From Zingiber officinale (taxonomy: Eukaryota > Streptophyta > Magnoliopsida > Zingiberales > Zingiberaceae): 64,000 nucleotides of DNA. This document shows, piece by piece, positions 884-31,225 of the stretch. The DNA lies in contig NC_055987.1 in NCBI RefSeq assembly GCF_018446385.1, forward strand, positions 32,251,202 to 32,315,201, written 5' to 3'. Below the pieces are notes generated by a model. It searched no databases. It worked only from the letters and a program-made list of their open reading frames with translations, and was not told the DNA's origin. The position numbers and the translations under genes were made by a program. Within the stretch, counting starts at the first letter, position 1; each line of letters starts with the position of its first letter.

Positions 884-1967
884 TGTTGAACCCTGTGGTA
901 GTTTTGATGTGATCAACCAAGTTTAGGTTAGGTCCTGTTTGTCTGATCCCTGTGTTTAAGTGTGCAGGAACTTAGGAATGCAGGAAGTCGAACGGAAGAT
1001 GCAGCTAGCGAGAAAGACGGCACGGGAAGGGAGCCGACGGGCTCGGTGCGTCCGAAGGACGAGAGAGCTACGGAAGAGTACACCCGGTGGGCGTGAAGAA
1101 CATGCGCGGTGTTCAAGGGACGTAAAGCCGGGATGGAAGACTGCTCGAGGAGAAGGCCGGGAACTGGGTTCGGGTGAGCCCTATTCCGGATGGCCGAAAT
1201 CACCCAAAGAAGCTGAACCAGAGCAAGTCAACTGGAAGTTGACTTATCAATGGTTCGGTCGACTGAACCTCCTGATCGGTCGACCGAACCCCTCTCAATC
1301 AGCAGCCAACCGCCAATGCCACGTCAGAAGTTGACCGTTGGTAAAGCTGATCGGTCGACCGAACATCCTGATGGGTCGACCGAACCGAAGTTAATCCAGA
1401 GACTTAGTCGAGCAAATTGATCAGGCCAACTCAGCTGGAGACCGTTGGCCGATCGGTCGACCGAACATAAGGATCGGTCGACCGAACCAAAGCTCGATCG
1501 TCAAAGACTGCACCTGGACGGAAGACTGGGCAGGTACAGTAGGTTCGGTCGACCAAACCTGGGGATTGGTCAACCGATCCCTCTCGAGTCAAACCTGATC
1601 CCGAAGGTTCAGGTTATTTGATAAGCTCTAGAACCCCTATATAATGGGGGTCTCGGGTAGCTATTAAAAATAACGAACTCTAACGAAATAGCAACTCTTA
1701 TACTCTCATTCTCTTAGCAACTACTATGCTGTCAAAGTGTAAAAGGCTTCTCCGGCTTCAGAGAAGGAGTTTTTCTTACTGCGCTTTTCTTACTGCCCTA
1801 GATTAACAACCCTCTTAGTTGTAACCAAGTTAATTTCTGTCTCCTTTTATTTCTGCTGTTAATTTTATTATTGTTGCTTTAATTTAAGAGTTGAAAAGGT
1901 TTGAGGAGGGTATAATATTTATCGCAGGCAATTCACCCCCCTCTTGCCGGTCCCCGCTACACCAACA
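884..1967 (+). repeat. 3' LTR of element A
   Basis: It begins TGTTGAACCC just after a purine tract (aaaaagggggaga) and ends CCAACA. The first 80 bases match the LTR starts of elements B, E and F (a TGATGTGATCAA-like stretch, then GTTAGGTTAGGTCCTG). It contains a GC-rich U3, a palindrome array and a TATA-like box near 1639. Confidence 0.8.
1252..1590. repeat. Array of GGTCGACC palindromes in the LTR of element A
   Basis: Eight copies of a motif close to the perfect palindrome TTCGGTCGACCGAA lie near 1252, 1274, 1350, 1369, 1453, 1472, 1541 and 1563. They come as four pairs, each pair spaced about 20 bases centre to centre, with pairs recurring every 90-100 bases. The array ends about 50 bases upstream of the TATA-like box. 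A regulatory or hairpin-forming role is inference. Confidence 0.85.
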
Positions 1968-2676
1968 CAGTCCAGTCGGTTGCAACTTTTAACAGTCAAC
2001 TGCACCAGTCGACTGCATGTTTTAGCAGTCGACTGCACCAGTCGACTGGCAGCGAACAGAAGCATTCTGTTCGCTCAGCAAATAGCTACCAGTCGACTGC
2101 TAGTTTTAGCTGTCGACTGGTAAATGACCGTTGGAGACCGTTGGTGATGCAAAGTAGCCGTTGGCTACCTTCAACAGTAGCACCAGTCAACTGATGGTTT
2201 TGCCAGTCGACTGGTGCCGAGATGAATTGATATGATGATCAACTCTCTCCTCTTATTTATAGGAAGCTTTGGGACTTGAAGGAGGTTACTAATTATTATT
2301 GAATCACTCCTTGTCATTGCCCAAAGCTTCCAAGCCTACTCTCTTCCTCCTAAACCTAAGTTCATCTTGTAAGAGGAAGAGAACTTTGTGAGAGGTTGTA
2401 CTCCACCGAGAAGGAGTAAGCTCTAGTCGGAGATTGTCAGGGATTGATCCACCGACGGATCAAGGGTTTGTCCACCTCAAGGACATGCCGTGGAGTAGGA
2501 GCAAGCAATCTCCGAACCACGTCAAGGAATCATGTTAGCGTTTGTGCTCTTACTTGTTTCTTTTCATTGCTTTAGTTTTCATATTCCGCTTGCATAACTA
2601 ACCTTGTAGAGAAGAATAAAAGCTGGGGGGTGACCTAGCTATCCAACCCCCCTTCTAGTCGGCCATCGATCCCTCA
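1968..2676 (+). mobile_element. Element G: LTR fragment of a second family
   Basis: A plus-oriented LTR-like segment with a TATA-like box (ttatttatagg) near 2254 and an end of the usual type (ccccccttctagtcggcc followed by atcgatccctca). Its start is cut off by element A. On its right side it abuts the protease region of the older minus-strand element C (a protease motif reads on the minus strand at about 2690-2735), so G appears to have inserted into C. No primer-binding site follows, so this is a solo LTR or a 3' LTR. Confidence 0.6.
1970..2220. repeat. Array of CAGTCGACTG palindromes in LTR G
   Basis: About eight copies of CAGTCGACTG or one-base variants (CAGTCAACTG, CTGTCGACTG) lie between 1970 and 2220, again mostly in close pairs. 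The array lies immediately upstream of the TATA-like box near 2254. The layout is the same as in the LTR of element A, but the palindrome differs. Confidence 0.85.
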
Positions 2677-3433
2677 CATGATCCTAGTCATGTGTCTGGA
2701 ACAACCACTGTCCAATATCCACTTGGTTTTCTAAAAATAAAATGTGGAAGTCATTATTAATTTAATTCATCAATTTTAACTTTTAATTTAATTTTAATTT
2801 TCAAGTCTTAATTTAATTTTTAACTTTAATTTTTAAGTTTTGATTTTAATTTTAATTTAATTTTAATTTAATTTTAATTTAATTTTAATTATTAAGTTTT
2901 AATTTAATTCTTAAGTTTTAATTTAATTTTTAAGTTTTAATTTAATTTTAAGTTTTAATTTAATTTTTAAGTTTTCATTTAATTTTAATTTAAGTTTTAA
3001 GTTTTCATTTTATTTTAATTTTTATGTTTTAATTTAATTTTAATTTGAGTTAAATTTTTATTTTAATTTTTAATTTAAATCCTTAATTATCTCACCTAAT
3101 TTACATTTTCAATTAGAGAATCCTATAGTTTTGTGAGTTGAGTTCAATTGAATTTTAGGGTTGGGTTTAACTTTGTGTTAGATTCATGTTTATCTTTGGA
3201 TTCAACAAATAGGCAGTTTTTGGATAAACTTCCAAATTGTGGTGAGCCACTTGGACATCATTAGAGTAACCACGCCTTCCAAATTTTTTAAATAGTCCTA
3301 TCCACTAAACTTAATACAAAACTCTAGTCTAACCAGTTAGGATTTGTAAAGGATAGCTTCAGTTAGTTCCACTTAGCCAAATACACCAGGTCGAAGTCAT
3401 ATCTTCCTAGATATGCATAGACAGAGTTTCCCT
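2677..3433 (-). mobile_element. Element C (old copia, minus): protease region and gag-pol spacer
   Basis: On the minus strand at about 2690-2735 the motif KWILDSGCSRHMT can be read. This is the active-site region of Ty1/copia aspartic proteases (DSG followed by C and H). The rest of the segment is an AT-rich spacer that continues beyond element B at 7220. Together with the gag region at 7630-8920 and the LTR at 9371, it shows an old minus-strand copia element, probably of the Gag-spacer-protease layout seen in SIRE-type elements. It is broken and interrupted by at least three younger insertions. Confidence 0.65.
2755..3070. repeat. AT-rich degenerate tandem repeat
   Basis: Repeated blocks built from TTTTAATTTAA and TTTTAAG fill this stretch. 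It lies in the gag-protease spacer of element C and probably grew by slippage after the element decayed. Confidence 0.75.
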
Positions 3434-4293
3434 TGTTGGTACCCCAAGGTTGTTTTGATGTGATCAAACAAGTTAGGTTAGGTCCTGTTGTGTTTAATCC
3501 TATGTCCAAGTGTGCAAGAACTTAGAGCACAAGATGTCGAGCAAAAGACGTAGCTAGCGAGAAGGGTCGCACGGGAGAGAGCCAACGAGCTCGGTGCGTC
3601 TGAGGGACGAGGTGCTATGGAAGAGTACCCGGGCGGATGAGAAGGAAGCGCACGGTGTTTCCAAGGGACGAGAAGCCAGGAGCGGAAGCTTGCTCGAGAA
3701 GGCCGAAAGTTGGGTTCGGGTGAGCCTTATTCTAGATGGCCGAGATCACCTAATCAAGAGGAACTGGAGCGGAAGATTCGGATCGAGGTGAGTGAAACTG
3801 GAGCGGAAGGCCCGGAGTGGAAAAAGTCAACTTGGTTTAATCTGGATTTATCTGGATCGCATTTGACCATGATCCTTTATGAAGGGGATAAAGTTTTATC
3901 TCCCTCCAGGCACCTAGAACCCTTCCAGGAACCCCAAGTAGGGTTATATAAGCAGTCCTACTCCCAAAGCTAAACTCTAACAAGAAATTGTGAAACAACA
4001 CTTGTACACATCCACTATTCTATTTTAACTTTCTATTTTTGCGCTTCCATTGCTGTAAAGAGACTTCTCTGCCTGAAGGAGAATTTTAGTGCTCTTTAAC
4101 TTCCTTGGATTAACAACCTCCCCGATTGTAACCAAGTAAATATGTGAGCCTCGTCTTTTTAGTTTATCTCTTATTTTGTTTATGCAAGTCTTTAGTTTAA
4201 TTAAGTTATAAGTCTGAGGAAGGTTTGTTTTGCTTGATTTGTGTTGGGGATATTCACCCCCCCCTTTCTAGCCGGTCGCTGAGGGTCCTAACA
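3434..4293 (+). repeat. 5' LTR of element B
   Basis: 860 bp, TGTTGGTACC to CCTAACA, with a TATA-like box (tatataagc) near 3945 and a run of C residues near the end. It is flanked on the right by the primer-binding site. Confidence 0.88.
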
Positions 4294-4350
4294 AGTGGTA
4301 TCAGAGCCAAGACGCTTTAGGAGGACTAATCGTCGAACGAAGCACATGAG

Positions 4351-5778
4351 ATGGCTGGACCGAGCATCTGCCCACTAAAGTTCGAGGGGGAGTTCGCGAG
4401 CTGGAAAAAGAAAATGGAGGTATTCTTTAAAATTGACTTTAAATTACTTTTAATAATGAAATTCAATTTTGTAGCACCTGAAGGAAAGGAAGAATACCAA
4501 TGGACGAAGAAGGAGCAGACTGATTTCGTAGTAAACGGCAAAGCAGAGTTCCATCTGTTGGACGTCCTACCATCATAAGTCAACCGAATCAGCGCCTAGG
4601 ACTCAGCAAAGGAGCTTTGGGAGAAGTTCCTTGAGCTACACAAAGAGACATCTGAAGCTAAGCTCACGAGACGTGATTTGCTAAGGAATCAGTTAAGCAA
4701 CATAAAACTGAAAGCAGAAGAAACCGTTGCACATCTTCACTCGAGAATTAAGGAACTAATCATCGGACGCATGAATCTCGAAAAAAAGGTAAGAAACCAA
4801 GATTCGCTGAGGTACGTGCTTAATGCATTTCCTAGATCTACTGAATGGGCATCATTAGATGCTTACTATATTTCTAAAGATTTAGAAGCTGTCACCTTAG
4901 AAGAAATGTTTTCAGCATTTGAATTCCATGAAATAAGATGTGAAGATTCGAAGAAGGAGCCGAAACACAATATTACCGTCAAGGCTAAGATGGACGAACA
5001 AGATTCAGAATCCTCTCTGGACGACGATGAAACGGTAATGATGGTAAGACAATTTAAAAAATTATTTAAATCTAGAAAAATTAACCATCTGTAGGGTAGA
5101 AAGAAAAGGAAAATCAAATTCTACCACTGCAATGAAGAAGGGCATATTAAAGATAACTACCCTAAATTGAAGAACAAGGACAAGGGTACGAACAAGAAGC
5201 TCGTCCAAACGAACAAGCACAAAAACCTGAAGGTGACGTGGGATGAAATGTCATCCGAATCAGAGATTAAGGCTTTCTCGAGACTTGCGTTAATGGCAAG
5301 TCATCAAGACGATGAAAACGAAGAAAGCTTGTTCGAAATGAGCATCGATGAAGGGGAAGTGACATCAGAAGAAAGCAGCAGTTCAGGGGGAGCTACAGAT
5401 AATGAGATAGACAAGGTAAGTCAGGTACGATCTCTTCCTCCCGATAAATTATTTAAAATTGTTAAGTTATTATCTAAAGACTATTGTAAATTAGAAAAAG
5501 AAAATAAAGAATTAAAGTTAATTCTAGCCAAATCATGCTTATTAGAAGATTTTGAAAAATTAAAATTGGAATATGATAAATTGAAGACACAAGTAGAAAA
5601 CTTGAAAAATCATACATGTTTAAGTGTTCAAACTCAAAATTTTAAAAGACTAAGCTGGTATCTTAGATTTCACAAGGGTCAAATTAGAAAAATTTCCAAA
5701 AGTTATGTGCCCCCAAAATTTTTGATTAATCCTGTAGGAAGGAACTTATATTGGGTTCCAAAATCTTATATAAGTTAA
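4351..5778 (+). other. Gag region of element B
   Basis: Reading-frame pieces here match the Gag of element F: an N-terminal MAGPS start, the WKKKMEVFF stretch, a helical middle part, a CCHC zinc-knuckle region near 5120-5165, an acidic Ser/Glu-rich segment and the terminal NPVGRNLYW motif. It is a fossil with a few breaks. Gag packages element RNA into virus-like particles in this class of elements. Confidence 0.75.
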
Positions 5779-6339
5779 AATCATAATTGAAATTAGCGCT
5801 TTCAGCGAGAAAATTAAATGTTTGATTTCCTTAAGAGACTTTATCTAGAAAGTGGTTGTTGCTCCAATAATCAAGAAGGCCTAGTACCTCGCCACAGCTT
5901 GGAAGTTAATTAATAAAATAAAATATTTAATTGGCTAACTGACAAAAGCAATGTAATTAGATAATGCTTTAAATAGTTACTCAAATATTTTACAGTATTT
6001 TTTATTTAGAAATTTTTTTTTACAAAACTTAAAGTTTCTAAAATTATTGCAAATTTTTCTAAGTGATTTACAAATTTTTTCAAAGTTTGATAAGTTTTCC
6101 AAAATTGTTTGAAAATCAAAGTTTTATAAAAACTAAAAAAAATTTAAAAAGTATCCTTAGATTCTTTTTGGTACCCCATTTTTTATGTGATCAAAGGGGG
6201 AGAAGGGAATATTAAGTATAGGGGGAGGTAGTTTAAATTGCTTTAAATTTTTTCACTTTAAATTGCAAATTTATTTCTTTTACTTTATGTTAGTTTACCC
6301 TAACTTAGCTTGGGTTGCTCACATCAAAAAGGTGGAGAT

Positions 6340-7214
6340 TGTTCGTACCCCAAGGTTGTTTTGATGTGATCAAACAAGTTAGATTAGGTCCTGTTGTGTT
6401 TAATCCTGTGTCTAAGTGTGCAGGAACTTAGGAGCACAAGATGTTGAGCAAAAGATGTAGCTAGCGAGAAGGACCGTACGAGAGAGAGCCGACGGGCTTG
6501 GTGCGCCTGAGGGACTAGGTCTTGCGGAAGAGTATGTGGGCAGACAAGAAGGAGGCGCGTGGTGTTTCCAAGGGACGAGAAGTCAGGAGCGGAAGCTTGC
6601 TCGAGAAGGCCGGAAGTTGGATTCAGGTGAGCCCTATTTCGGATGGCCAAGATCACCCAATCAAAAGGAACCAGAGCAAAAGACCTGGACTGAGACGAGT
6701 GAAATCGGAGTGGAAGGTCTAGACTGGAAAAAGTCAACTTGGTTGACTTTCCTGGTCCGGGCGCTCGAAATAAGATTTTATCTGGATCACATTTGACCGT
6801 GATCCATTACGAAGAGGATAAAGTTTTATCCCCCTCCAAGTGCATAGAACCCTTCCAGGCGCCTCGAGCAGGGCTATATAAGTAGCCCTACTCCCAAAGC
6901 TAAACTCTAATTGTGAAACAACACTTGTACACATCCATTGTTCTATTTTAGCTTTCGATTTCTACACTTTCATTATTGTTAAGAGGCTTCTCTACCTGAA
7001 GGAGAATTTTAGTGTGCTTTAATTCCTTGGATTATCAATCTCCCCGGTTGTAACAAAGTAAATCTATTATCCTCGTCTTTTTAGTTTATCTCTTATGTTG
7101 TTTATGCAAATGTTTAGTTTAATTATGTTATAAGTCCGAGGAAGGTTTGTTTTGCTTGATTTGTGCAGGGGCTATTCACCCCCCCCCCCTAGGCGGCTGC
7201 CGAGGGTCCTAACA
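6340..7214 (+). repeat. 3' LTR of element B
   Basis: 875 bp, TGTTCGTACC to CCTAACA, similar to the 5' copy. Scattered differences are visible by eye, so the insertion is not very recent; divergence was not computed. Confidence 0.88.
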
Positions 7215-7219: not shown

Positions 7220-9370
7220 AACCTACTATATCATCCAAAACTTCACCATTACCATTTTTCATGTTAAACTATTATCCCTTTTTAGACGAGTCCTAATTAC
7301 CCATTCGGGTAAATTTATTGATTTTGGAGATGCCAACTAGTTTGGAGCCTCCCCTTGAATTATTAGACTGGGTTTTAGGTTTTGGGTTTGTGTCAATTTA
7401 CTTTATAGTTATAATGAACTTGGTTATAGTTTGAGCTTAGATTAATTTTGGTTTTATTTAATTTAGGTTTAGTTATAACCTTGGTTGACTTTAGCTTAGA
7501 GGGGCTAGTTTTTGAGATTAAGGTTGACTTATTTGGTTTATTTGTTTTTAGATGGTGCATTTTATTTTTAGGTATGTAGTATTGATTGATTCCTACTTGC
7601 ATGATTAGGCACGCTTTCAGAACCCAGGCTTTGGTTTAATTTTTATGTTGATTGACTAAAGATATAAACATTTTGTTAGTTAATCTGGACTTGTATCCAA
7701 GTCCAGACTTATTATACACAGCTCTTTGTGATCCAAGTATCATATCTAGATACTTAGATCTTGTTATAAAATTTTCTAATAGTTGTTTTAGTTCAAATAC
7801 TTCGCTTTTCAATCTAGAATTATCCTTCTCAAGTTGTGCAACTTGAGTCAGAATTTCAAGTTGAATTGACTTAATTGTTGAGTTTGAATTTAGTTGTTCG
7901 TTAAGTATTTTATTTTCTTTGGTTAGTTCATTTATTTGTTCTTCAAACGCAGTTAATTTATTATGTAAGCATGCAATAATTTTAAAGAACTTTTTTCTTA
8001 AGATAGACTGTACCTCATTGGAACCTTCAGAAATGAGTACGGACTCATGGCTCGATTCGAGTTCAGACTCGTCTTCTGATTCACTCTCCGACTCTGGTCC
8101 ATACGCCATCAGCACAAGTTGGTGTGCCTTGGTCCATCACCGTTTGATTTCTCGGCAGACAATTCATCCCACGTTGCTTTGAGGGCTTTCTTTTTCTTGA
8201 GATTTGAGCAGTCGTTCTTGTAGTGTCATTTCTTGTTGCATTCAAAGCACGCAACATTGGTCTTGTTGTTGCTGGAATTTGAAGTGTAGTTGATCTTTTG
8301 CTGGTTCCTTTTGGTGAAGTTCTTCTTTCTCTTGGTGATCATCTTTCTTACCAGGTTCACAAGGTATTCTTCATCATTCGAGTCTTGGTCAGACTCAATT
8401 TTAGGTTCTGGTTTAGTTCTAATATTTTATTTTATTGTTCCTACAATAAGAGTAATACCTTTCTTGGGTTTGACATTAGTATGTTCGTGAAGCTCTAATT
8501 CACAGAAAAGTTCATCTAATTTAAGTTTATATAGATTTCTCGAGATTTTGTAGGCATCCACGATAGATGCCCACAATACATTTCGAGGGAATGTATTCAG
8601 GGCATACCTTATCAAGTCTCGGTTCTCCATCTGATGGTTAATTGTGTGGAGCCCGTTGAGGATGTCTTTTATTCTGGGGTGCAGTTGACTAGCAGATTCT
8701 CCTTCCTGCATTTTGATATTAAATAATTTATTTAAAAGTAAATCTCTTTTTGTTACCTTTGCGTCTGGGTCCCTTGTGTAGCTCTATGAGCTTGTCCCAT
8801 AGTTCCTTTGCATTTTCATGTAGGTTGACATGATTCAATTCCTCCTTTGTTAGTCTGCACTGGATTGTGTTAAGAGCCTTGAAGTTAATCTGGTCCTTTT
8901 TCTTCATCTTCATATTCTAATTTTCTCGGTCCATTGGAATTCTGGTGTTGTGGTCGACTGGTGCTTTATATCCTTTAGTAACGTTGAACCACTAGTCGAA
9001 GTCAGTTTTCAAGTAGACTTCCATCCACTTATTCTAGTATAAGAAATCATCCCCGTAAAATAAGGGTGGATGAACATTGCTATATCCTTCGTTTCGAGCC
9101 ATTTGTCACTAAAATAGAAAATTAGAGAAAGATACCAAGACTTGCTCTTGGATTAGCAGGGTTCTAAGAAAATAAAATATATCAAGGAACTCAAGTGGTG
9201 TTGTACCAGCTTCGAGTAAAAATTGAACGAAAAAGAGTTATTTGAAGAGGTAAACTTTTATTAATTCAAATAAAATGTAAAAAACTAAAATCCAAAGAAA
9301 ATAAATCAATTCCCCCTGGCTTTATTGATGGTTGCACCAATTCATAGCAGAACTTGGCTCTAATACCACT
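7220..9370 (-). mobile_element. Element C (old copia, minus): gag region and primer-binding site
   Basis: Read on the minus strand, this starts with a primer-binding site at about 9358-9370 (tggtattagagcc, one base from the initiator tRNA-Met type). It is followed by Gag pieces at about 8913-8427, a zinc-knuckle-like stretch near 8190-8270 and an acidic/coiled-coil part at 8115-7636 that ends with the motif LGSQRAVYNKSGLGYK, common in copia elements with a long Gag. The gag is broken in several places. The sequence continues on the other side of element B at 3433. Confidence 0.75.
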
Positions 9371-9417
9371 TGTTGGATCGGGTCGCATGTGAGAGGGGGG
9401 TTGAATAACGTGATTTT
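9371..9417 (-). repeat. LTR of element C, left piece
   Basis: The first 47 bases (TGTTGGATCGGG at the left edge) of C's LTR next to its primer-binding site. The LTR is then interrupted by copia element D and resumes at 18600. Confidence 0.75.
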
Positions 9418-10322
9418 TGTTAGGATGTATACTAAAAGTCTAGCTTTTTGTATGAACATTTATTTTGAAATGAGAATCACATTGGTCAAATGTCTGTATT
9501 TAGTTAAATGCAGTTGTTCATTTAATTTATATTGAAGATAACATGGTGTGTGGTGTCACACAGAAGATCATGTTATCAGTTCCTTATAAATTATAAATAG
9601 TAGCTCACAACCAAGATGGATTGGGACAAACCATTGGAATGGTTGTAGTGTAATTTGGTATTAGTTTATCTTGACTATAAAATTACACTAGTACACTATG
9701 TGTGTATTGAGCAGGACCATTTGAGGTTGTTTCTTTTTATATTGACTATATAAAAGAACATAACCTCTATTATTATGGATGTGCGTACTCTTAATCCCGA
9801 TATAATAACAAGCACATATACTTAGTATTTATTTTTTTTATTTATCAATGGGTGAGATTTATTCATTAAATCAATAGGCCCGATAAGTTGGGAAATAATA
9901 TTATTTATATGGTGTGTTGTTGATTATAGAAGGAAACTGTGTCCTAGTTATCTAGGTTGATGATGTCCCCTTGAGGAGCTCATAAGGATTGTCATGTAAA
10001 CCCTGCAGGTGGACTTAGTCTGACATGACAATGAAGTTGAGTGGTACTACTCTTGGAGCTAGATGTTAATTAAGTGAGTTGTCAGTAACTCATTTAATTA
10101 ATAGACATTCGATATCTTAAACACAGGGAGATTAATGCACTCATAATAAGAAGGAGCCCATAATGTAATATGGGATTGGTGTGGTAGTTCAATAATGACT
10201 CTTTAGTGGTATGAGTTATTATTGATGAACTTGAGTTAGGTGTTTGGGTCGAACACAGGAAGCTCAAGTCCATCAGGAGGCCAAAACCAATTCCTCCTCT
10301 AGGTCCCTGTTGTAGCCTCTTA

Positions 10323-10610
10323 GACCATCCACACCTGCTTCCCTATCCAAAATGCATAATTTAGGGTAAAAAAATTACGTTATTAAATTTGGATATCCAC
10401 TTTTCAATACATCATATATCAGTTTCCCTATTTTTTTCTCTCTCCTCTATAATGTTTAGGGAATGGAATCCATTCCCTAAATTTAGAGAAGTATTGTTCA
10501 TAAATGCATAATTTAGGGAATCGATAGGGTAGCTGATGTAAAGATTTTTTAGCTACCCTATCCAAAATTTAAGGTAAAATTTTTGAATAGGGTATCTGAT
10601 GTGGATGCTC
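10323..10610. mobile_element. Harbinger/Tourist-type MITE inside the 5' LTR of D
   Basis: 288 bp with imperfect terminal inverted repeats (GACCATCCACA at the left, GAGCATCCACA as the reverse complement of the right end). It is flanked by a 3-bp TTA duplication (10320-10322 and 10611-10613). The 3' LTR of the same element has the empty site with a single TTA (near 17228), which proves insertion after the LTRs were formed. A TTA duplication plus this TIR length fits PIF/Harbinger-derived MITEs. It has no coding capacity. Confidence 0.88.
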
Positions 10611-10784
10611 TTATTAAAAGCCTTTTTATCCACCCAAAGCTCAGCTTCTTACCCAAGCTAGGCGTCGGCCACATCCTTGCTTGGTGCCCAAGCAAGGGGC
10701 CTGCCAAGCCCATCTTGGTGTCCAAGATGTGGTCGGCCAAGCCTCGCTTGGTGACCAAGCAAGGGGTCGATCACTAAAGAAATA

Positions 10785-11165
10785 AAAAGAGATGTTTTAA
10801 TTTTTTTAAAATCTTTCCTTTTATAGCAATTTACAAAGGATTAAAAGAGAGATTTTAATTCTAAAATCTTTCCTTATTTTGAAGTCATCCACATGGTTTT
10901 AAAAGAGAGTATTAAATTTTAAAATCTTTCCTTTTTTGTTGCCATCTATAATGATTTAAAAAGAGAGATTTTAATTTTGATAAAACTTTCCTTTTTTGTA
11001 ACCATGATTTAGAAGAAGAGAAGTTTAATTTTAAAATCTTTCCTTTTTGTAGACATCTACAATGTTTAAAAGAAAGAGATTTTAATTTTTTAAACTTTCC
11101 TTTTGTAGCCATCATAATAGAAAATTTAAAAAAGAGAGATTTTAATTATTATTAAAATTTCCTTT
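10785..11165. repeat. Minisatellite in the 5' LTR of D
   Basis: About six copies of a unit of roughly 60 bp containing AAAGAGAGATTTTAA, AAAATCTTTCCTTTT and a short GTAGCCATC-like spacer. The same array is present in the 3' LTR at about 17335-17720, so it predates the insertion of D. Confidence 0.8.
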
Positions 11166-12111
11166 TATGTCATGACCAAGGATTATAAAAGAGAGGTAGA
11201 GGGTGCCTTATGGGAATAACACATCTCCATATTTCTCTTGTTCCCTTAGAGTCGAAACCTAAGCTTTCCCTCTTCTCTTTTCCTTGGTGGCCAGCTCTTC
11301 TCTCTTTCTCTTCTCCCTTTGTTTTCTTCCCTTAAGGCCGGCGGCACATCAAGCTCCATCTTCTTGTGGCCAGTTTGCTTGGAGGGGAAGAAGAAGAGAA
11401 GGAAGTTTCCTATTTTGGCATTCCTTGGGTGGCCGAAACTTGTAGGCAAAGAAGAAGATTCGGGTGGATTTCAACTTGGTAGATCATTGCCCACATGACG
11501 TCCAAGAGGAGGAGAGGAATACAATATAAGATCAAAAGGTATTTAGCTGCATAGAAAGGTATAACTAATTATTTATTTCCGCTGCATAATTAGTTTGTGT
11601 TCTTTGTATGAATCCTAAAATACCAACACAAGAGACTATCGATTTTATATTTCGATTTTGTGTTTCGATTTTATGTTTCAATTTTATGTTTCTATTGTAG
11701 TCTTTATAGTTAAACCTAAGGTTACTATAAGAAGTTTAAATATTCAATTTCTTTGAAAGGCTTTGTCTAGGAAGTAGTGGATGATCCCATATCCAAGAAG
11801 GCCGAGTGCCTCGCCATGTTTAACCTGGAAGTCAATCTTTGAAATAAATATTTAATCAACTTTTGTAATATGGTTTAACTTCTGAAGAACACATGGGTTG
11901 AATTTGGAGTAAAAATGATAAGTTCCGTTTCCAATCCAAGTTTAACTTCTGAAGAACAACTTGGATTAAAAATGTTAAGTTTTATTTGCAATTCAAGTTT
12001 AACTTCTGTAGAGCACATGGGTTGCTAGGAAAAGTTCTGTTCTTGTACAAATTTTTGTACAGGGGAAACGGAACAGAATTCTGAGTAGCACCCAATAATT
12101 GGTATCAGAGC

Positions 12112-13600: not shown

Positions 13601-13617
13601 TCGAAACATATTTAGCG

Positions 13618-16179: not shown

Positions 16180-16324
16180 GGAGAAGTTGTTGTCGCCAAA
16201 ATTACATCAGTAGATAACCTGGATCCTTTCACTTAGGCCCTTCAGGCGAGAACTTTTAATGGGCATGTTAAGGGGATGAGAATCAGATGTATGGCAGCAT
16301 AGTTTTTTAGTATAAGTGGGAGAT

Positions 16325-18599: not shown

Positions 18600-19880
18600 G
18601 TTTTCAAACACAAATCTTTTTCATTTTTAAGAATAAAGTGTACTGCAAAAAACTAAGAAAGCAAAATAGAAAATAAAGTAAAAGAATATGCACTCGATTT
18701 TACTTAGTTCGGAACATTCGGTGACTCCTACTCCAAGACACAGGTCTCACGGACCTATCGATAGATAATCCACTAAAATACCTCTTTCAGTACCTCTGAA
18801 AGAGGGAATCGAGTATAAAAGAATTCGAAACAAGTGCAACACACTGCACTTGTCCTTTTGCAGTAATTAAATACACAAATGAAAAGATTACCAAACACTC
18901 TTTCAATATGGTCAGCTTGAGCTTGGTGTTTGGGCGGCTTCTTAGTAGTAGATGAGTGTAGCAGCATCGCAGCAGAGTTGTAGCTGAAAGCCAGAGCGTT
19001 TGGAAGTTCGATCGAAAGCGTAGATGTTCGTATCAGTGTGTTCTCTGATAGCTTGGGCGAGCAACCCTTATATTGATCATGGAAGGCATCTTCAAAGACC
19101 TTGAAGGCACCTCCAATGTGGCAATTCTGATCCTGAACAACTCGATCCTTATCTTTGATGAATTCTGAACTTTATCCTAAGGAAGGTGCCTTCCATGCAC
19201 TGAAGGCACCTTCTATGAACAGTGCCATGACACCTTCAGTGCTTGAAGGCGCCTTCCATCCTTTAGAATGCGCCTTGGATATTGTTCACTCGAGTCATTT
19301 GTGCTCTTCTTTCCTTGCAAAGCGTATTAGTTCAATAAACCAAATAATAACCTGCAAGACAAGTGTTAGCACAATAATACTGAGTAGTAATTAGACTCTG
19401 TTTTCCCGAGACTAGAATCTAATCAAGGTCTCAATTTAGGTCCAATTTAGGAGTCCGAAATTGACCTAAATTGGATTGACGCCTATTGTTCCTCAACCGG
19501 GACGCGTGTTCACCGAGTTACTCTCCTCGAGTGAGTTACCTTTACTTACCAATTTATAGTCGGTTTGACTAGTCTCTTGACCCACCAGGTCTTCATGTCA
19601 GTTATTAGGTCCGCAGACTCAACTGAATTTCTACCGGTCGTTAGGTCCTGCAGACTCGACCGGGCTTCCCGCCATATATCAGGTCAGCTCGTTGACCTAT
19701 TTGGACTTTACACTAGCTATCTGGTCCCATGGACCTAGTTGGATTTCAACTTGGTGTTAGGTCCTCCAGATCCATCAACTCCTGCACACTTGGTTAAGCA
19801 ATTAGATCACAACAATACATAACTTAACTTACTTGTTATTCATCAAAATCTGAGTTAGACCGTTAGTACAAACTGCACCA
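18600..19880 (-). repeat. LTR of element C, right piece
   Basis: Continuation of C's minus-strand LTR after the D insertion, ending around 19880 (ctgcaccaa). Read on the minus strand, it has a TATA-like box (aatataagg) near 19066 preceded by an array of AAGGYGCCTT palindromes. The boundary at the right is placed by analogy with the usual ending of this LTR type and may be off by a few bases. Confidence 0.65.
19080..19290. repeat. Array of AAGGYGCCTT palindromes in LTR C
   Basis: About eight copies or near copies of GAAGGCACCTT / AAGGTGCCTT / AAGGCGCCTT lie in 200 bases. They are directly upstream (minus strand) of the TATA-like box near 19066. A third palindrome type with the same placement as in A and G. 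Confidence 0.8.
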
Positions 19881-21086: not shown

Positions 21087-21962
<876 letters not shown>

Positions 21963-22987
21963 TGTTGGAAACCTAAGATTGTTTTGGTGTGATCAACAAG
22001 TTAAGTTAGGTCCTATGTGTTTCTAACCTTGTGTCTAAGTGTGCAGGAGCTTAGGAGCACAGGTACTCGAGCGGAAGACGCAGCTAGCGAGAAGAACGGC
22101 ACGTGGTGCGTCTAAGGGACGAGGTGCTGCGGAAGAGTACCCCAGTGGACGAGAAAGAAGCGTGCGGTGGTTCCGAGGGACGAAAGCCGGAGCAGAAGAT
22201 TGCTCGGGGAGCAAGAGACGCAGCTAGCGAGAAGGTCGGCACGGGGTGCGACCGAGGGACGAAGACTGCGGATGAGTACGCTGGTGGACGAGAAGGAAAC
22301 ATGCGGCGATTCCGAGGGACGAGAAGCCGGAGTGGAAGGCTGCTCGAGAAGACCGGAAGTTGGGTTCGGGTAAGCCTTATTCCGGATGGCAGAGATCACC
22401 CAAGTAAGCGGATCCGGAGCGGAAGACCCGGACCGAGGCGGGACTGAAACGGAGCAGAGGTCCCGGAAAAAAAAGTCAACCAGAGTTGACTTTTGGGGTC
22501 CGGAGCGCCCGGACCCCTCCGGGCGTCCAGACCAGCCTTTTGACCAGGATAGAGTTTTGACTCGATCTGATCGTTGGGGGATAAAGTTTATCCCCCCAGG
22601 GCGCCCGGAACCCTTCCAGGCGCCCCAACCAAGGCTATAAATATAGTCTTGGTCCAGAAACTTTTAAAATGAACTCTGAATTGTAATTCCAACGCTTGTA
22701 AGCTTTAGTCTAGAGTTGAGCTTCTGTTTTCTGCGCTTCAACGTTGTACGAGGCTTGTCCGCCTGAAGGAGTTTTTTAGTGAGCTTAATCTTCCTTGGAT
22801 TAACAACCACATATCGGTTGTAACCAAGTAAATCCTTGTGCCTCGCTTTTCCTTATGCTTTTAATTTATCGGCTTACTTCATATATACAAGTGTAAGCTT
22901 AAAGAGTTCGAGGAAGGGTTGTTTTGTTTTTGACTTTACAGGACTATCCAACAACCCCCCCCTTCCAACCGGCCCAACGGTCCTACA
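21963..22987 (+). repeat. 5' LTR of element E
   Basis: 1025 bp, TGTTGGAAAC to GGTCCTACA. A TATA-like box (ctataaatatag) lies near 22634, and GGGCGCCC-type palindromes lie just upstream at 22505-22625. Confidence 0.87.
22505..22625. repeat. GGGCGCCC palindromes in the LTR of E
   Basis: Four or five copies of GGGCGCCCGGA-like motifs lie just upstream of the TATA-like box near 22634. The 3' LTR has a longer set at about 25160-25330. Confidence 0.8.
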
Positions 22988-24625
22988 AGTGGTATCAGAG
23001 TCGAGACGCCTCAGAAGGACTAACCGCCATCTGAAGCAACAAAACGATGGCCGGAGCTAGCGACTACCCACCTACATTCGAGGGGGAGTTTTCCATCTGG
23101 AAACAAAAAATGGAGGTATACCTTAATTCAGATTTTGGTATTTCTTTAATATTAAAATTTGGTTATGAAGAACCGAAGAACACGAATGGAGAAAGACTCG
23201 ATCTACGCCTTTGGAACAAGAAGCAACGTGACGAGTCAATGGCAAACGGTCGGGCATAATTTCACATTCTAAGCGCAATACCAACTAAAGATTTCGACAG
23301 AGTCGGAGAGTACAAAAGCGCGAAAGAACTTTGGGAAAAGTTTTTAAAGCTCTACGAAGAACCGGTTGAAGCCGTCTCCTTAATAGACATTGAGTCGTCA
23401 TCAGAAGAATCCGAGACATAAGAAATTACCGAGACAGCCCCAACAAACTCAATGGTCGAATTCCATCCCGAAGCAAGCCCATCCCGGATGAGCAACGATG
23501 AAGGGGAGAAACTTCGGAAGAAAGCAACTCGACAGGGGGAGAATCAACTATCGAAAAGGTAAGTCAGGTATGGACTCGAACTTCCGATCAATTGGTTCAA
23601 TCAATCGAAAAACTGCATGAAGATTTTTTCGAATCAGAAATTGAATCTTCGAAAAAGTTTTTTAGATTAAGAAATCTATTATTAATAGACTCCTGCAAAT
23701 TAGAATTTTTGTTAAAAAATTCCTGCAAACTACAAAATATTTTTTCGAACGAATCTTGCACATTGGCGAAAGAATTTTTTATATCGTCGGAAAAATTTTT
23801 CGAATTAAAAAATCTTTTGTCAAACAAATCTTGTAAAACAGAAAAATTGCCGAAAGATTTTTTACCTATTATTTTGCTGAAAGAATGTTGCCAAATAAAA
23901 GTATTGTCAAAAGAGTCTTGCAAGTTACAAAATACTTTGTCAAACGAATCTTGCAAACTTAAAACATGTTTGAAAGACCTTTTATCAAATATTTCGTCAA
24001 AAGAATTTTCTGAATGTTTAATATTATTTACTTTAAATCTGAAAAAGTGTGATTTAAGAAGTTATGATATATTGAAATGAGAATTTAAAACTTTCTGATA
24101 AAAGTATTAGAATAAAATAAATAAATAAATAAATACATAGAATTTTTTTTTTAATATTATCAATTTTCTTAAATTTTCTTGCATAAAATTTAGGGCTTAG
24201 AAAAAAAAATTTGTGAAAACTTAGAAATTTTCCAAAAGTTATTCTTAACTTTCTCTGATATTTTGAGATTGCTGTTGTGAAAATTATTGCAAAATTTTCA
24301 AAGTTCTCAAAATTTGCTAAAAAAAGGTTTTAATGACCTGGAATTTTTTTTTACCTAGAAATTTTCCTTGACTTAGAAATATTTTTTTTAATATTTTTTT
24401 CTAAGTCTTTAACCCTTAGATTGTTTTTCTTGAAACTCCATTTTTTTGTGATCAAAGGGGGAGAAGGGAAAGTATAAGTCTAAGGGGAGATAGATAGATT
24501 TAATTTTTTTTATCTTTTCTATCTTTTTACACTTAAATTATAAATTAAGTAATTTACTTAATTTTATTTAATGTCTATTTTAACCCTAGCTTAACTTGGG
24601 TTGATCACACCAAAAAGGGAGAGAT

Positions 24626-25689
24626 TGTTGGAACCCCAAGGTTGTTTTGGTGTGATCAATAAGTTAAGTTAGGTCATGTGTGTTTCTAACCTTGTGTCTA
24701 AGTGTGTAGGAGCTTAGGAGCACAGGTACTCAAACGGAAGATGTAGCTAGCGAGAAGGACGGCACGTGGTACGTTTGAGGGACGAGGTACTGTGGAAGAG
24801 TACCCCGGTGGACGAGAAGGAAGAGTGCGGTGGTTCCGAGGGACGAAAGCTGGAGCGGAAGATTGCTCGGGGAGCAAGAGACGCAGCTAGCGAGAAGGTC
24901 GGCACGGGGTGCGACCGAGGGACGAAAACTGCGGATGAGTACGCTGGTGGACGAGAATGAAACATGCAGCGATTCCGAGGGACGAGAAACCGGAGCGGAA
25001 GGCTGCTCGAGAAGACCGGAAGTTGGGTTCGGGTGAGCCCTATTTCGGATGGCAGATATCACCCAAGTAAGCGGATCCGGAGCGGAAGACCCGGACCGAG
25101 GCGGGACTGAAACGGAGCAGAGGTCCCGGACAAAAAAGTCAACCAGAGTTGACTTTTGGGGCCCGGGGTGCCCGAAGCTGACCGGGGCGCCCGGACCCCT
25201 CCGGGGCGCCCAGAACCCTTCCGGGCGCATGGACCAGCCTTTTGACCAGGATCGAGTTTTGACTCGATTTGATCGTTGGGGGATAAAGTTTATCCCCCCA
25301 AGGCGCCCGAAACCCTTCCAGGCGCCCCGACCAAGGCTATAAATATAGCCTTGGTCCATAAGCTTTTAAAACGAACTCTAAATTGTAATTCCAACACTTG
25401 TAAGCTTTAGTCTAGAGTTGAGCTTCTGTTTTCTACGCTTCAACGTTGTACGAGGCTTCTCCGCCTGAAGGAGTTTTTTAGTGAGCTTAATCTTCCTTGG
25501 ATTAACAACCACATCGGTTGTAACCAAGTAAATCCTTGTGCCTCGCTTTTCCTTATGCTTTTAATTTATCGACTTACTTTATATATACAAGTGTTAGCTT
25601 AACGAGTTCGAGGAAGGGTTGTTTTGTTTTTGACTTTACAGGACTATCCAACAACCCCCCCCCCTTCCAGCTGGCCCAACGGTCCTACA
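24626..25689 (+). repeat. 3' LTR of element E
   Basis: 1064 bp, TGTTGGAACC to GGTCCTACA, with GGGCGCCC palindromes at 25160-25330 and the TATA-like box near 25337. Confidence 0.87.
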
Positions 25690-28361: not shown

Positions 28362-29135
28362 TTAGATCCTGACGAAGAATATGCTGAGCTCCGGGCCGTC
28401 GTTGCCGTCGGGGTTGAGCATGTAGAACGTCTCGGAATCCTTGGAGCCGGTGACCCGGTCGAAGTAGGCCCGCATGTAGGTGAGCTCGCCGTCGACGGGG
28501 TCGGTCATGTCGCCGGGCAGCACGCCGGCTCCCATCGACACCGCGTGGAGTAGCTGCATCACGCCGAGGTCCAGCTCCGTTGGGTCCCTCTTGGCGGCGT
28601 AGCCCACGTTTCGGCCGTTGATGTATGCCACCCACAAGGGCTCGTCGAGGACGCAGCTTTTCTCGCCGGCGCCGGCGCCGGCGACCTTCTTCTCGCACTC
28701 GAGGGCGACGCGGAGGAGGCTGGAGGAGCCCATGTCCTGCATGAACCGGGCGGTGGGGACGGCCAGCTGGAGGAGGAGGAGAGGCACGCTACGGGGGTTG
28801 TCCTGGAAGGCCACCGTGATGCGGGCCTTGCGGTGGCCGAACAGGGTGCCGGTGGTGCGGGTGCCGTGGACGTGGCAGTCCCGGCGGCCGCTGGAGCCGA
28901 CTCGGCTGAGGGCGGCGGTGGGGATGTGACATCCGGGCGGTGTGGCGATGATGGGAAGGGCTCGGAAGGCGGAGCGGAAGGAGCGCAACAGCTTCGTGGA
29001 CCTGGAATGGTTGTGCCTCCGCTGCGACGGCGGCTGGAGGAGGATGGCCGGGAAGCGATGAACCGTGCTCGGCTCTGGAGCGTCGGGGTCGGCCGCCGCA
29101 GCCGCCTTACCAGGAAGGGGAGGAGGGCCTGCCAT
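28362..29135 (-). CDS. MIZ1-like: MIZU-KUSSEI1-like protein (DUF617)
   Basis: A single-exon frame of 257 aa (Arabidopsis MIZ1 is about 297). The DUF617 domain fills roughly residues 75-257. Visible family motifs are VAFQDNPRSVPLLLLQLA, the FMQDMGSSSLLRVALE stretch, YINGRNVGYA, MQLLHAVSMGAGVLPGD, DGELTYMRAYFDRV, KDSETFYMLNPDGN and the C-terminal GPELSIFFVRI, all close to the family consensus. MIZ1 is needed for root hydrotropism in Arabidopsis and acts at ER membranes in calcium signalling; the exact role of this paralogue is inferred. The frame is strongly GC-rich at third positions, as in many monocot single-exon genes, unlike the AT-rich flanks. The start at 29135 (MAGPPPLPGK) is the first in-frame Met; the N-terminal 60 residues are Pro/Ala/Ser-rich and poorly conserved. 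No breaks were seen. Confidence 0.9.
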   Translation of the reverse strand: MAGPPPLPGKAAAAADPDAPEPSTVHRFPAILLQPPSQRRHNHSRSTKLLRSFRSAFRALPIIATPPGCHIPTAALSRVGSSGRRDCHVHGTRTTGTLFGHRKARITVAFQDNPRSVPLLLLQLAVPTARFMQDMGSSSLLRVALECEKKVAGAGAGEKSCVLDEPLWVAYINGRNVGYAAKRDPTELDLGVMQLLHAVSMGAGVLPGDMTDPVDGELTYMRAYFDRVTGSKDSETFYMLNPDGNDGPELSIFFVRI

Positions 29136-29758
29136 GGATCGGCAGAGCGACGTCGGCGTGCGGCACCACCGATCTTGATTACCAAATACAATATATGAAA
29201 CAGAGAAGAAGAAGATCAGGCTTGGAGAATAAAAATAAATAAATAAAATTGTTAATTAGAAAGAAGAGATTACATCGAATCAAGTTTAGTAAGTGAAAAA
29301 TTAACGGCCGTGCACGTTTTAAGGCAGGAAGATAATGAGAGGAGGTTAATTAGATTAATGAGAAGAAGTTAATTAGATTTGATGTTTCTGTCTGATTTAA
29401 AATATGGCATTAAATTTCATTGATTCCTGAAATCCTTTCACATCTCGTCTAAACGCAAGGACATTAAATTTCAACTAATTGCAGATTGTTTACATAGTAC
29501 ATTTTTCCAATGTAAAACCTAAAGCTTATATATCCTTTTCAAATTTATAAATCTCACCTAAATACCATTAGTTTAAATTAAACTCAAGCTAATGATGTTT
29601 AGTTAACATAGTATAACCGGAATGCCCTTATGCTCAAGTCAAGGCTGGACCTGATGGGAGGCCCAAACATCTAAGAGGGGAAAAAAATATATATTATAAA
29701 TTAATTATAGACTCATTTAATTTTTTGATCATATGTAATCTAATTATTCAATCGTATA
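29136..29758. promoter_or_regulatory. Upstream region of the MIZ1-like gene
   Basis: AT-rich sequence 5' of the minus-strand MIZ1-like gene. It should contain the promoter and 5' UTR, but I cannot place a convincing TATA box or start. Nothing else was recognised. Confidence 0.35.
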
Positions 29759-31225
29759 TGTAGGATCGAGACCTAATAAAGGGATGAATAGTACTCCTAG
29801 CTTTCACGTTTATTTTTCGAAAAACACTCATGTAAGAGTTTGTAAAGTGGAAATAAAGGAATAAACGAAAATAACAATACAAGTTTGTTTTACTTGGTTC
29901 AGAGTCTATGACAACTCATATTCCAAGACCCACGCTCATTGAGTTTTACTTTGACCAATTTACTATCAGTTCGTAAAATTACCAAGACAAGTACAATTAC
30001 AATCTGATTAAAGTTAAGTGTTATAAATGAAATTATATCGACAACTTAGAAAGTTGGAGATGCGAGCTTTCGGTCGTCGAAACAACGTTACAGTTTCGTG
30101 GACTTGTCTTTGGAGCAGTATGCAAGATCAGAAAATATTTGAACTGTTGTAGTTGAAGTTACTGGTCAAATCCTTTTTTATAGTCGAGTTGAACCTGATC
30201 TAGATCCTCTGATCTTGGGATCACTGTTTGACTCGACGTTGATTGGTTGATCGATTCCTCTGATCGGTCGACTGATCCTACCTGAATTTGCCCAGCTTTT
30301 CGTCCAAATGCTACTACTCGGATAAGAGTCTTCGTTCGATCAATCGATCTCGTTGTTCGGTTGATCGATCTGTTGATGATCCCTGACTTATCTGATTCGA
30401 TTGACCTAGTCTGATCAACCCGCTGCTTATCCACTATTCGGTCGACTGAACCCAACGTTCAGTCGACAGATCCCTTGGTCGAAACTTAGCCGTGAGCTGA
30501 TATGATTTCTGGGGTTTAGTCGATTGATCTCAATGTTCAGTCGAGCGAATAAGGTAAATTTTGATCCTACAAAATGTTAGTCTTCCTGTAAAACAGAGTT
30601 AGAATAATATGTAAATAGTATATAAAAATTAACTTTTAACAACCTTTGGGTTGTTCGGTCATGATTTTGAGTTTCGTTGAACGATAGGTCAGCCTGAGGC
30701 CTACTGTCCTCTCTTCGGGGAACGTGTCCTCCCCTATTCCTCTTAGAAGAGTTTATCTTTTGCTAGATCGATCTTTCAGACCGTCTGGACTTTTGCTCAG
30801 CATCGGAGATATCAGGACTTCATGCTGAATGTCCGATCCTGACCCGTCCGGTCTACCACCTGATGTATGTGACTCCTAGGATTTTCTCCTAGAGTCCTTG
30901 ACTATAAGATTTTGTCTAATGTCCTCGACTCTAATATTTCGTCCAACGTTCTCGACTTTAGAATTTTGCCCAATGTACTCGACCCATCAAGACTTCGCTC
31001 AGTCTCCCGGACCAGGACTTCTTTACATAACCATAGCTAGGACTTTCCTAACCTAGGGTTATCTCCTCCTAAGACCTAAGGTTACTTTCTCCTAGGATTT
31101 TTCACTTATCTAAAATTTACTAGGACTTTTACCTAAAAATACTTAGGATTTTCTTACCAGCTCCTCTCAACTTTTAAATCTTCTATCATTATTAAAATTT
31201 CAGATTCGATCATCTGATGTGCACA
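29759..31225 (-). mobile_element. Element H: solo LTR, minus orientation
   Basis: 1467 bp from TGTAGGATCGAGACC to a GTGCACA end. Its layout resembles LTR C: a TTACTTGGTTC-like stretch with CCAAGACCCACG at 29900-29940, a minus-strand TATA-like box (tataaaaaagg) near 30175, an upstream array of palindromes at 30220-30560, then CTC-rich sequence. No internal region is attached, so it looks like the product of LTR-LTR recombination. No clear target duplication was seen, so the borders are approximate. Confidence 0.6.
30225..30550. repeat. GGTCGACTGA palindromes in LTR H
   Basis: Around eight motifs of the type GATCGGTCGACTGATCC, TTCGGTCGACTGAACC, CGATCAATCGATC and TTCAGTCGACAGATC lie upstream (minus strand) of the TATA-like box near 30175. 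Several are paired. Confidence 0.75.

What the first reader, a model, noticed from the sequence alone, without database searches (positions are those of the whole stretch)
1252..30550. Five LTR families carry separate palindrome arrays just upstream of their TATA boxes
Each LTR type here has its own short palindrome repeated several times in U3, ending 30-150 bases before a TATA-like box: GGTCGACC type in A (1252-1590), CAGTCGACTG in G (1970-2220), AAGGYGCCTT in C (19080-19290), GGGCGCCC in E and F (22505-22625, 34735-34870), and GGTCGACTGA in H (30225-30550). The sequences differ but the architecture is the same, including frequent pairing of copies. Either several families converged on a shared promoter design (binding sites for dimeric factors, or hairpins in RNA or DNA), or the arrays are fast-evolving from one ancestral design. 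I know of no named feature that describes this.
Basis: partly seen in the sequence, partly recalled or inferred. Interest (0 to 1): 0.7.

Follow-up and report, generated by a model that had tools for sequence, protein, structure and literature searches.

The report
Sirevirus promoter palindrome arrays
Plant jumping genes of the Sirevirus type carry arrays of short palindromes just before their promoters, a feature described in 2010; here the palindromes come in evenly spaced pairs and one whole array seems to have been exchanged between relatives, which suggests a swappable control switch.

Summary
The arrays are real but not nameless. They are the palindromic "repeated motif (RM) boxes" of Sirevirus (Ty1/copia) LTRs, upstream of a conserved TATA box (Bousios 2010, PMC2829016). 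Family A's core CGGTCGACCG is letter for letter the RM listed there for the element "Vitis". A, B, E and F pass the Sirevirus structural tests.

Palindrome excess over shuffles is clear in A, G and F, and for the repeated core in E's 3' LTR; it is weak in C, E's 5' LTR and H, whose copies are imperfect. Gaps to TATA are about 7-60 bp, not 30-150.

Beyond the texts I could read:
(1) Palindromes are paired, centres 19-21 bp apart (12 of 77 blind distances; 0 of 5000 random placements reach this).
(2) LTR A is a mosaic: flanks of the B/E/F clade, array of the H type, so arrays can be exchanged; convergence is not needed.
(3) In A, B3, E and F the TATA box lies inside an inverted repeat whose arms differ by family yet stay complementary.

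Best mechanism: clustered sites for dimeric regulators, about two helical turns apart. Hairpin/siRNA production is a live, compatible rival. Neither was testable directly.

The parts
884..1967 (+). LTR A (3' LTR), mosaic: flanks of the B/E/F clade, array of the H type
   Evidence: PPT and AT/TG junction before it; sliding similarity
1255..1577 (+). A array: 8 boxes of CGGTCGACCG type in 4 pairs, each pair 21 bp centre to centre
1628..1655 (+). A TATA-centred inverted repeat (10 of 14 pairs)
   Evidence: (19/1000 shuffles reach it)
1968..2690 (+). LTR G fragment, 3' end approximate; its 5' part is not seen, A lies against its array
   Evidence: array, TATA and C-rich 3' end read directly
1973..2214 (+). 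G array: CAGTCGACTG type, 9 boxes (10 matches with 3 mismatches or fewer, one overlapping one dropped), 4 pairs 20 bp apart plus one extra box
3434..4293 (+). LTR B5, related to E/F, array nearly lost
6340..7214 (+). LTR B3, same family, two imperfect boxes 98 bp apart; TATA-centred inverted repeat at 6866-6893
19078..19295 (-). C array: AAGGYGCCTT type, imperfect, pairs 20-21 bp apart; LTR fragment roughly 18600-19890, ends uncertain
21963..22987 (+). LTR E5 (TSD TGGAT)
22501..22627 (+). E5 array: 4 boxes of CGGGCGCCCG type in 2 pairs (18 and 19 bp)
22627..22654 (+). E5 TATA-centred inverted repeat (11 of 14 pairs)
24626..25689 (+). LTR E3
25164..25329 (+). E3 array: 6 boxes in 3 pairs, 19 bp; one pair more than E5
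25329..25356 (+). E3 TATA-centred inverted repeat (13 of 14 pairs)
   Evidence: 0/1000 shuffles
30235..30560 (-). H array: decayed CGGTCGACCG type, 4 pairs each 21 bp apart, last box 60 bp from TATA as in A; LTR fragment roughly 29765-31230, ends uncertain
34401..35224 (-). LTR F3 (TSD CACTG)
34734..34869 (-). F3 array: 4 boxes of CGGGCGCCCG type in 2 pairs (19 and 28 bp)
34707..34734 (-). F3 TATA-centred inverted repeat (12 of 14 pairs); F5 has the same at 37861-37888
   Evidence: 0/1000 shuffles
37553..38359 (-). LTR F5
37888..38015 (-). F5 array: 4 boxes in 2 pairs, 19 bp

Best explanation
These are the cis-regulatory arrays (RM boxes) of Sirevirus-type Ty1/copia LTR retrotransposons. Shown: repeated palindromes stand just upstream of the TATA box, in pairs whose centres are mostly 19-21 bp apart, and the array of LTR A has a different ancestry from its flanks. 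Inferred: each 10-12 bp palindrome binds a symmetric dimer of a host transcription factor. The pair, about two helical turns apart, places two dimers on the same face so that they bind together, and several pairs act as the element's enhancer. Families differ because the array is exchanged between related elements as a cassette (for example by template switching during reverse transcription), gains and loses pair units, and decays at its CpG sites. The identification is near certain for A, B, E and F, likely for G, and rests on weaker similarity for C and H; the dimer mechanism is the likelier of two main readings.
For: Sirevirus anatomy: terminal PPT with AT/TG att site and PPT-flanking inverted repeat in 4 of 4 testable junctions (A, B, E, F), further PPT-like copies upstream; tRNA-Met-type PBS motif after B5 and E5, 5-bp TSDs for B, E and F, C-rich 3' ends; copia-type gag in B and F. 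Published RM boxes: dyad-symmetric, up to 14 copies in a 3' LTR, upper half of the LTR, upstream of TATA, CGG-CCG core, one of them CGGTCGACCG. Pair spacing: blind, sequence-agnostic caller, 12 of 77 distances at 19-21 bp; best 3-bp bin in 5000 random placements was 9; 0 of 1832 control 300-nt windows had two such pairs. Array excess over shuffles in A, G, F. Mosaic: A flanks to F/E/B z 50/26/38 (5') and 16/19/15 (3'), to H z 2.0 and 1.6; A array to H z 16.1, to F/E/B z 3.3/2.7/-1.7; switches near 1206-1250 and 1600-1700. A and H keep the same 60 bp between last box and TATA.
Against: No protein is known to bind these boxes; Bousios 2010 found no common factor. In the blind count E5 gives no 19-21 bp pair and F3 and H one each, so that test rests mainly on A, G and C; 2 of C's 4 such distances involve a site that is not a clear family box, leaving 10. 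19 bp is 1.8 turns, not 2. Copies inside one array may be duplicates, so pairs within a family are not independent. Within pairs, complementarity between the two boxes is no worse than inside each box (234 against 225 of 288), which a pure dimer-site model does not predict. CpG observed/expected in the arrays is not above that of the adjacent U3 in E5 and F3 (it is in A).
Confidence: 0.6

Rival explanations
1. The arrays work as RNA: U3 is transcribed at the 3' end of the element's RNA, the paired palindromes and the TATA-centred repeat fold into hairpins, and these are either processed into small RNAs by the host or serve RNA 3'-end formation.
For: Folding far beyond shuffles: A array z -10.1, E3 -5.8, F5 -6.0, against -0.7 for the first 342 nt of LTR A. 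Boxes of a pair are complementary to each other in 234 of 288 positions, slightly more than within boxes (225); in 8 pairs inter exceeds intra, in 3 the reverse, 13 ties; true partners are more complementary than non-partners in 6 of 8 LTRs, less in E5 and E3. The TATA-flanking arms covary between families. Maize Sirevirus palindrome regions are small-RNA hotspots (passages in PMC5311732 and PMC10760457). A dual TATA/poly(A) role was suggested for Retrofit-type LTRs and a very short R for Sire and Retrofit (PMC3601003, section read).
Against: Any palindrome pairs with its copy, so folding does not separate the two models; the inter/intra difference is small (8 against 3). Being a source of siRNAs is a cost to the element and does not explain why boxes persist. 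No small-RNA data here.
Confidence: 0.27
2. The palindromes are a mutational by-product: template switching by reverse transcriptase on quasi-palindromes perfects them and duplicates units, with no function.
For: Unit gain or loss between the two LTRs of E (one pair, 39 bp) and a changed spacer in F; arm sequences differ between families while symmetry persists. The window as a whole holds more palindromes of 8 bp or more than its shuffles (514 against a mean of 301 in 5 shuffles), so palindromes are not confined to arrays.
Against: Does not explain 19-21 bp spacing across differing spacers, the place before TATA, or the lack of a repeated GC-rich core in the other copia LTRs of the window (D, at most 2 copies).
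Confidence: 0.08
3. Five families converged independently on the same promoter design.
For: The C array shows no similarity to any other array (z -1.0 to 0.7), and G only faint similarity to E3, H and A (z 3.8, 3.6, 2.8) and none to F3 or B3 (0.4, 0.3).
Against: A, B, E, F share Sirevirus features and are homologous outside the array; G has the C-rich 3' end; C and H resemble the clade weakly in U3 (C-F z 6.8; H-F and H-B 3.9); A and H are homologous inside the array; only two core classes.
Confidence: 0.05

Closest known systems
Sirevirus RM boxes (Bousios et al. 2010, PMC2829016)
   Same: Dyad-symmetric boxes, many copies per LTR, starting 200-400 bp into the LTR, upstream of a conserved TATA box; A's core equals the Vitis element's CGGTCGACCG; multiple PPTs, PPT inverted repeat and C-rich 3' signal also present.
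   Different: G (CAG...CTG) and C (AAG...CTT) lack the CGG-CCG signature; no env-like gene was identified here; pair spacing, TATA-centred arms and array exchange are not mentioned in the parts of that paper I read (abstract, sections 8, 9, 11, 19 and passages from two term searches).
Palindrome-rich region of maize Sirevirus LTRs (Bousios et al. 2016, Genome Research; not held, known from citing papers)
   Same: Clustered palindromes in the cis-regulatory part of the LTR, predicted secondary structure, high variability (as cited).
   Different: Different motif (CACCGGACNNNGTCCGGTG as given in PMC10760457); small RNAs not testable here; I could not read whether spacing was analysed.
Tnt1 superfamily U3 modules (PMC1838419; passages)
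   Same: Copia LTRs in which the U3 regulatory region varies and evolves as a module apart from the rest.
   Different: Not Sirevirus (recalled); the word palindrome does not occur in its text; there the U3 differs between subfamilies, here an array of the same ancestry can be named in another LTR (H).
Conserved TATATA motif of Sire and Retrofit LTRs (PMC3601003; passages and one section)
   Same: Conserved TATA box in Sire-type LTRs.
   Different: No inverted repeat around it is mentioned in the passages I read.

Membership tests
Sirevirus (A, B, E, F) | Terminal PPT tied to AT/TG attachment site | tested here: met
   4 of 4 three-prime junctions
Sirevirus (A, B, E, F) | Inverted repeat flanking the PPT/3'LTR junction | tested here: met
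   25-30 identical positions over 31-33 columns in 4 of 4
Sirevirus (A, B, E, F) | Several PPT copies upstream of the 3' LTR | tested here: met
   3-5 AAGGGGGA-like octamers (1 mismatch or fewer, terminal one included) within 1500 nt (883 nt for A) in each of 4; the far ones may be chance
[quoted passage not shown]
   Read directly in A, B, E, F, G; not clear in C, H
Sirevirus | Reverse transcriptase phylogeny | not testable with these tools
   No pol found in B, E, F; A, C, G, H are cut off
Sirevirus RM boxes | Multiple palindromic boxes in the upper half of the LTR upstream of TATA | tested here: met
   A, G, F strong; E, C, H with imperfect copies; B nearly none
Sirevirus RM boxes | CGG-CCG core signature | tested here: inconclusive
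   Met in A, E, F (as consensus) and by inference H; not met in G and C. The 2010 paper itself lists one exception
Sirevirus RM boxes | At least eight copies per element | tested here: inconclusive
   Per LTR: A 8, H 8, G 9, E 4 and 6, F 4 and 4, C 6; the paper counts 3' LTR plus linker
Sirevirus RM boxes | Array forms a CpG island | tested here: inconclusive
   CpG o/e 0.72-1.39 in A, E, F, G, H, but 0.28 in C, 0.20 in B5, and no higher than adjacent U3 in E5 and F3
Sirevirus RM boxes | Extra boxes before an env gene | not testable with these tools
   No env-like gene identified; none of the 10 same-core clusters lies in an internal region of A, B, E or F

The most novel reading that the evidence does not exclude
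Sirevirus LTRs carry an interchangeable promoter cassette with fixed geometry: palindrome pairs set two helical turns apart, ending in a TATA box enclosed by covarying arms. Different lineages trade whole cassettes, each with its own palindrome and thus its own cognate dimeric factor, so that an element changes its regulator, or escapes matching siRNAs, in one step.
Probability: 0.25. Interest if true: 0.62.

Novelty: new variant of a known kind. Interest (0 to 1): 0.42.

Why it matters
Sireviruses occupy 21% of the maize genome (passage in PMC10760457), and what drives or silences them is open; the 2010 authors could name no factor for the boxes. A fixed pair spacing and an array that can be swapped whole give concrete handles: a spacing rule to test in reporters, a motif pair for DAP-seq, and a natural experiment (LTR A) in which one array type sits in another family's LTR. 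The covarying arms around TATA suggest a structural role at the U3/R border that could be probed directly.

Tried and rejected
Chance: rejected for A, G, F by shuffles and for the spacing by a max-statistic; not rejected for perfect palindromes in C, E5, E3 and H.

Hairpin against dimer by comparing complementarity inside and between boxes: not decisive.

CpG-island reading: the arrays do not stand out from neighbouring U3 in E5 and F3.

Relatives elsewhere: an 18-base PPT/LTR junction pattern in IMG/VR gave one match, L001, whose list of palindromes shows no array; a looser pattern gave 0; F gag gave 5 pattern matches, none a relative by tblastn. In genome contigs the 18-base pattern gave 10 matches, all in bacterial records by title; by my own estimate chance gives several in 257 Gb; I did not read them. 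The window's own genome could not be searched: the genome search did not answer in 7 attempts. So every statement about families rests on this one window.

Literature: 9 answered paper searches (one search listed 20 of 39 and 10 of 19). No listed title or abstract opening named RM pair spacing or a TATA-centred inverted repeat in Sireviruses; but the key 2016 paper is not held, and no figures or supplements were seen.

A first version of the TATA symmetry scan had an indexing error that skipped even-length centres; one search replaces it. C's TATA-like box was not put through that test. Alignment A2 was made with shifted A and B5 pieces and was not used. One search ended in an error only after all scores were printed. 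Scripts used 1962-1963 as the end of A; the LTR ends at 1967.

Rows dropped before counting boxes: of the matches listed I kept A 8 of 15, G 9 of 10, C 6 of 7, E3 6 of 9, H 8 (of 15 to its own and 10 to the symmetric consensus), leaving out overlapping, off-register or very weak ones; E5, F3 and F5 kept 4 of 4.


Full report
What the window is. A stretch of plant DNA full of nested LTR retrotransposons, with a pyruvate kinase gene and other genes. I mapped LTRs by self-comparison and by their ends: A (3' LTR, 884-1967), B (3434-4293 and 6340-7214, TSD TCCCT), E (21963-22987 and 24626-25689, TSD TGGAT), F on the minus strand (34401-35224 and 37553-38359, TSD CACTG), fragments G (from 1968), C (roughly 18600-19890, minus) and H (roughly 29765-31230, minus), and D, a copia element with pol and LTRs of 2.3-2.7 kb (9417-12095, 16324-18597).

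The observation. Palindromes of GTCGAC core in A and G and GGCGCC core in E and F are clustered in the LTRs at the stated places. Perfect palindromes of at least 8 bp: A 7, G 6, F3 5, F5 4, with 0 of 300 dinucleotide shuffles reaching each; but C 1 (159 of 300), E5 1 (136 of 300), E3 2 (72 of 300) and H 1 (229 of 300). The most repeated GC-rich 6-mer palindrome: A 7, G 6, E3 4, F3 4, F5 4 (0 of 300 each), H 3 (3 of 300), E5 2 (9 of 300), C 1 (197 of 300). Controls: the first 342 bases of LTR A hold no palindrome of 8 bp or more. D's LTRs show no repeated GC-rich core beyond chance, although they are mildly rich in palindromes (right-hand LTR 17 against 11.3, 16 of 300; palindromes of 10 bp or more in the second part of the left-hand LTR 6 against 2.6, 12 of 300). 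The window as a whole holds 514 against 301 in 5 shuffles, so palindromes as such are not special to LTRs; the repetition of one core is. After dropping overlapping and off-register matches (see Tried and rejected), A has 8 boxes, H 8, G 9, C 6, E5 4, E3 6, F 4 and 4. B, a relative of E and F, has almost none. Over the whole window 10 clusters of three or more copies of one GC-rich 6-mer palindrome were found; 6 lie in these arrays.

Pairs. Boxes come in twos: A 21, 21, 21, 21 bp between centres; H 21 four times; G 20 four times with one extra box 13 bp on; C 21, 20, 21; E 18, 19 and 19, 19, 19; F 19, 19, 19 and one of 28 (these pairs were picked by me after inspection). A blind caller that knows only symmetry and GC content, on one LTR per family (A, G, C, E5, F3, H), found 36 sites and 77 distances up to 130 bp; 12 fell at 19-21 bp. 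The best 3-bp bin anywhere from 10 to 110 in 5000 random placements was 9 (mean 5.4). By family: C 4, A 3, G 3, F3 1, H 1, E5 0; 2 of C's 4 involve a site that is not a clear family box, and the remaining 10 still exceed every placement. Of 1832 control 300-nt windows none had two such pairs. Random placement does not model duplication of pair units within an array, so the agreement between families is the stronger part of this evidence. The gap from the last box to TATA is 60 bp in both A and H, 39 in G, 8 in E and F, about 7 in C.

What it is. A, B, E and F have the Sirevirus hallmarks: terminal PPT and AT/TG att site, PPT-flanking inverted repeat, extra PPT-like copies, PBS motif after B5 and E5, C-rich 3' end, and copia-type gag by Pfam in B and F (the E and A pieces gave no gag hit). 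Bousios et al. 2010 (PMC2829016; abstract, sections 8, 9, 11, 19 and term passages read) describe exactly such boxes as "repeated motifs": palindromic, many copies, upstream of a conserved TATA, absent from classic copia elements, core CGG-CCG, with CGGTCGACCG for the element Vitis. The finding is therefore an instance of a described feature. G and C lack the CGG-CCG signature.

Convergence or descent. Segment by segment, the first part of U3 and the part after TATA put A with B, E and F (z 25.6-50.1 and 14.6-18.5); C and H are distant (A-C z 4.6 and 1.7; A-H z 2.0 and 1.6). In the array A matches H (z 16.1; with all eight palindromes removed z 9.9, 0 of 200 shuffles) but F, E, B at most faintly (3.3, 2.7, -1.7), while B, E and F match one another (12.9-16.2). 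Along LTR A in 90-base steps the best match switches from F/E/B to H near 1206-1250 and back near 1600-1700. Either A received an H-like array or the B/E/F line replaced its own; in both cases array and flanks have separate histories. The C array aligns with no other (z -1.0 to 0.7) and G only faintly with E3, H and A (3.8, 3.6, 2.8), so their origin stays open. A and F are 86% identical over aligned bases in the first 323 bases (84%) yet carry different boxes, so the change of array is young compared with the clade. E's two LTRs differ by one pair unit and F's by a spacer. H departs from CGGTCGACCG mainly by CpG transitions (11 of 18), and over all families 31 of 63 departures are such (for E and F part of the 'departures' are real variants of the box edge).

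TATA. In E3, F5, F3, B3 and E5 the TATA box is the centre of a 28-base near-palindrome (13, 12, 12, 11, 11 of 14 pairs; 0, 0, 0, 2, 3 of 1000 shuffles reach this); A has 10 (19 of 1000); B5 8 (256 of 1000); G 7 (841) and H 8 (369) are not above chance; C was not tested. The arms differ between families but remain complementary: 32 of 36 outer pairs in one LTR per family (A3, B3, E3, F), the highest of the 24 ways to re-pair left and right arms (next best 29). For B I took B3, the LTR with the better repeat. This is suggestive with only four families. B, E and F also share a GGGGATAAA/TTTATCCCC-like hairpin upstream of the proximal pair.

Mechanism. Two readings compete and may both hold. Dimer sites: explains internal symmetry, clustering, place before TATA and same-face spacing; rests on inference. 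RNA hairpins: explains folding z of -10.1, -5.8 and -6.0 against -0.7 for a control stretch and the slight excess of complementarity between boxes (234 against 225 of 288), and fits small-RNA hotspots reported for maize Sireviruses. My test does not separate them. I favour dimer sites as what keeps the boxes and hairpins as a consequence that hosts can exploit.

Limits. One window, one copy or pair of LTRs per family; the source genome could not be searched; the 2016 paper was not readable; no expression, binding, methylation or small-RNA data.

Noticed in passing
window 1-883, 4294-6339, 22988-24625, 35225-37552: B, E and F have internal regions of only 1.6-2.3 kb with gag-type sequence and no pol found; A's visible end also passes from a short ORF (1-360) to the 3' LTR without pol. 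They look like non-autonomous gag-only elements (TR-GAG type, name recalled; listed). Pfam gag hits only in B and F; E's gag is inferred from DNA similarity to B, A's from reading its sequence.
   Followed up: partly
window 1329-2160: The 7-mer CCAACGG occurs 9 times in the window (both strands); 5 lie, all on the same strand, between the palindrome pairs of A and G. It resembles the MSA/MYB3R element of cell-cycle genes (consensus recalled); one full 11-base match near 2129.
   Followed up: partly
window 1961-1980: Element A lies directly against the palindrome array of LTR G, apparently inserted in it; a weak preference of plant LTR elements for palindromic targets has been reported (PMC6911290, abstract and passages).
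   Followed up: no
window 32731-39500: F appears to sit in an intron of a pyruvate kinase gene, between the exon ending at about 34275 and that starting near 39020.
   Followed up: partly
window 7639-8783 (-): Broken copia gag remains on the minus strand between B and D (Retrotran_gag_2 in 8430-8783).
   Followed up: no
window 9417-18597 and 62582-62698: Copia element D has long LTRs (2.3-2.7 kb) with tandem repeats of about 57 bp; a 117-bp piece of its LTR start recurs at 62582 on the other strand.
   Followed up: no
window 22572-22597, 25274-25299 and equivalents in B and F: A sequence-conserved hairpin, GGGGATAAA...TTTATCCCC, between the two palindrome pairs.
   Followed up: partly
window 21090-21201: Perfect (TA)56 repeat.
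   Followed up: no
window 28365-29255 (-), 54900-55310 (+), 61277-62454 (-): Other genes: DUF617 protein, tRNA-His guanylyltransferase (Thg1), FAR1/MULE transposase-derived protein.
   Followed up: no
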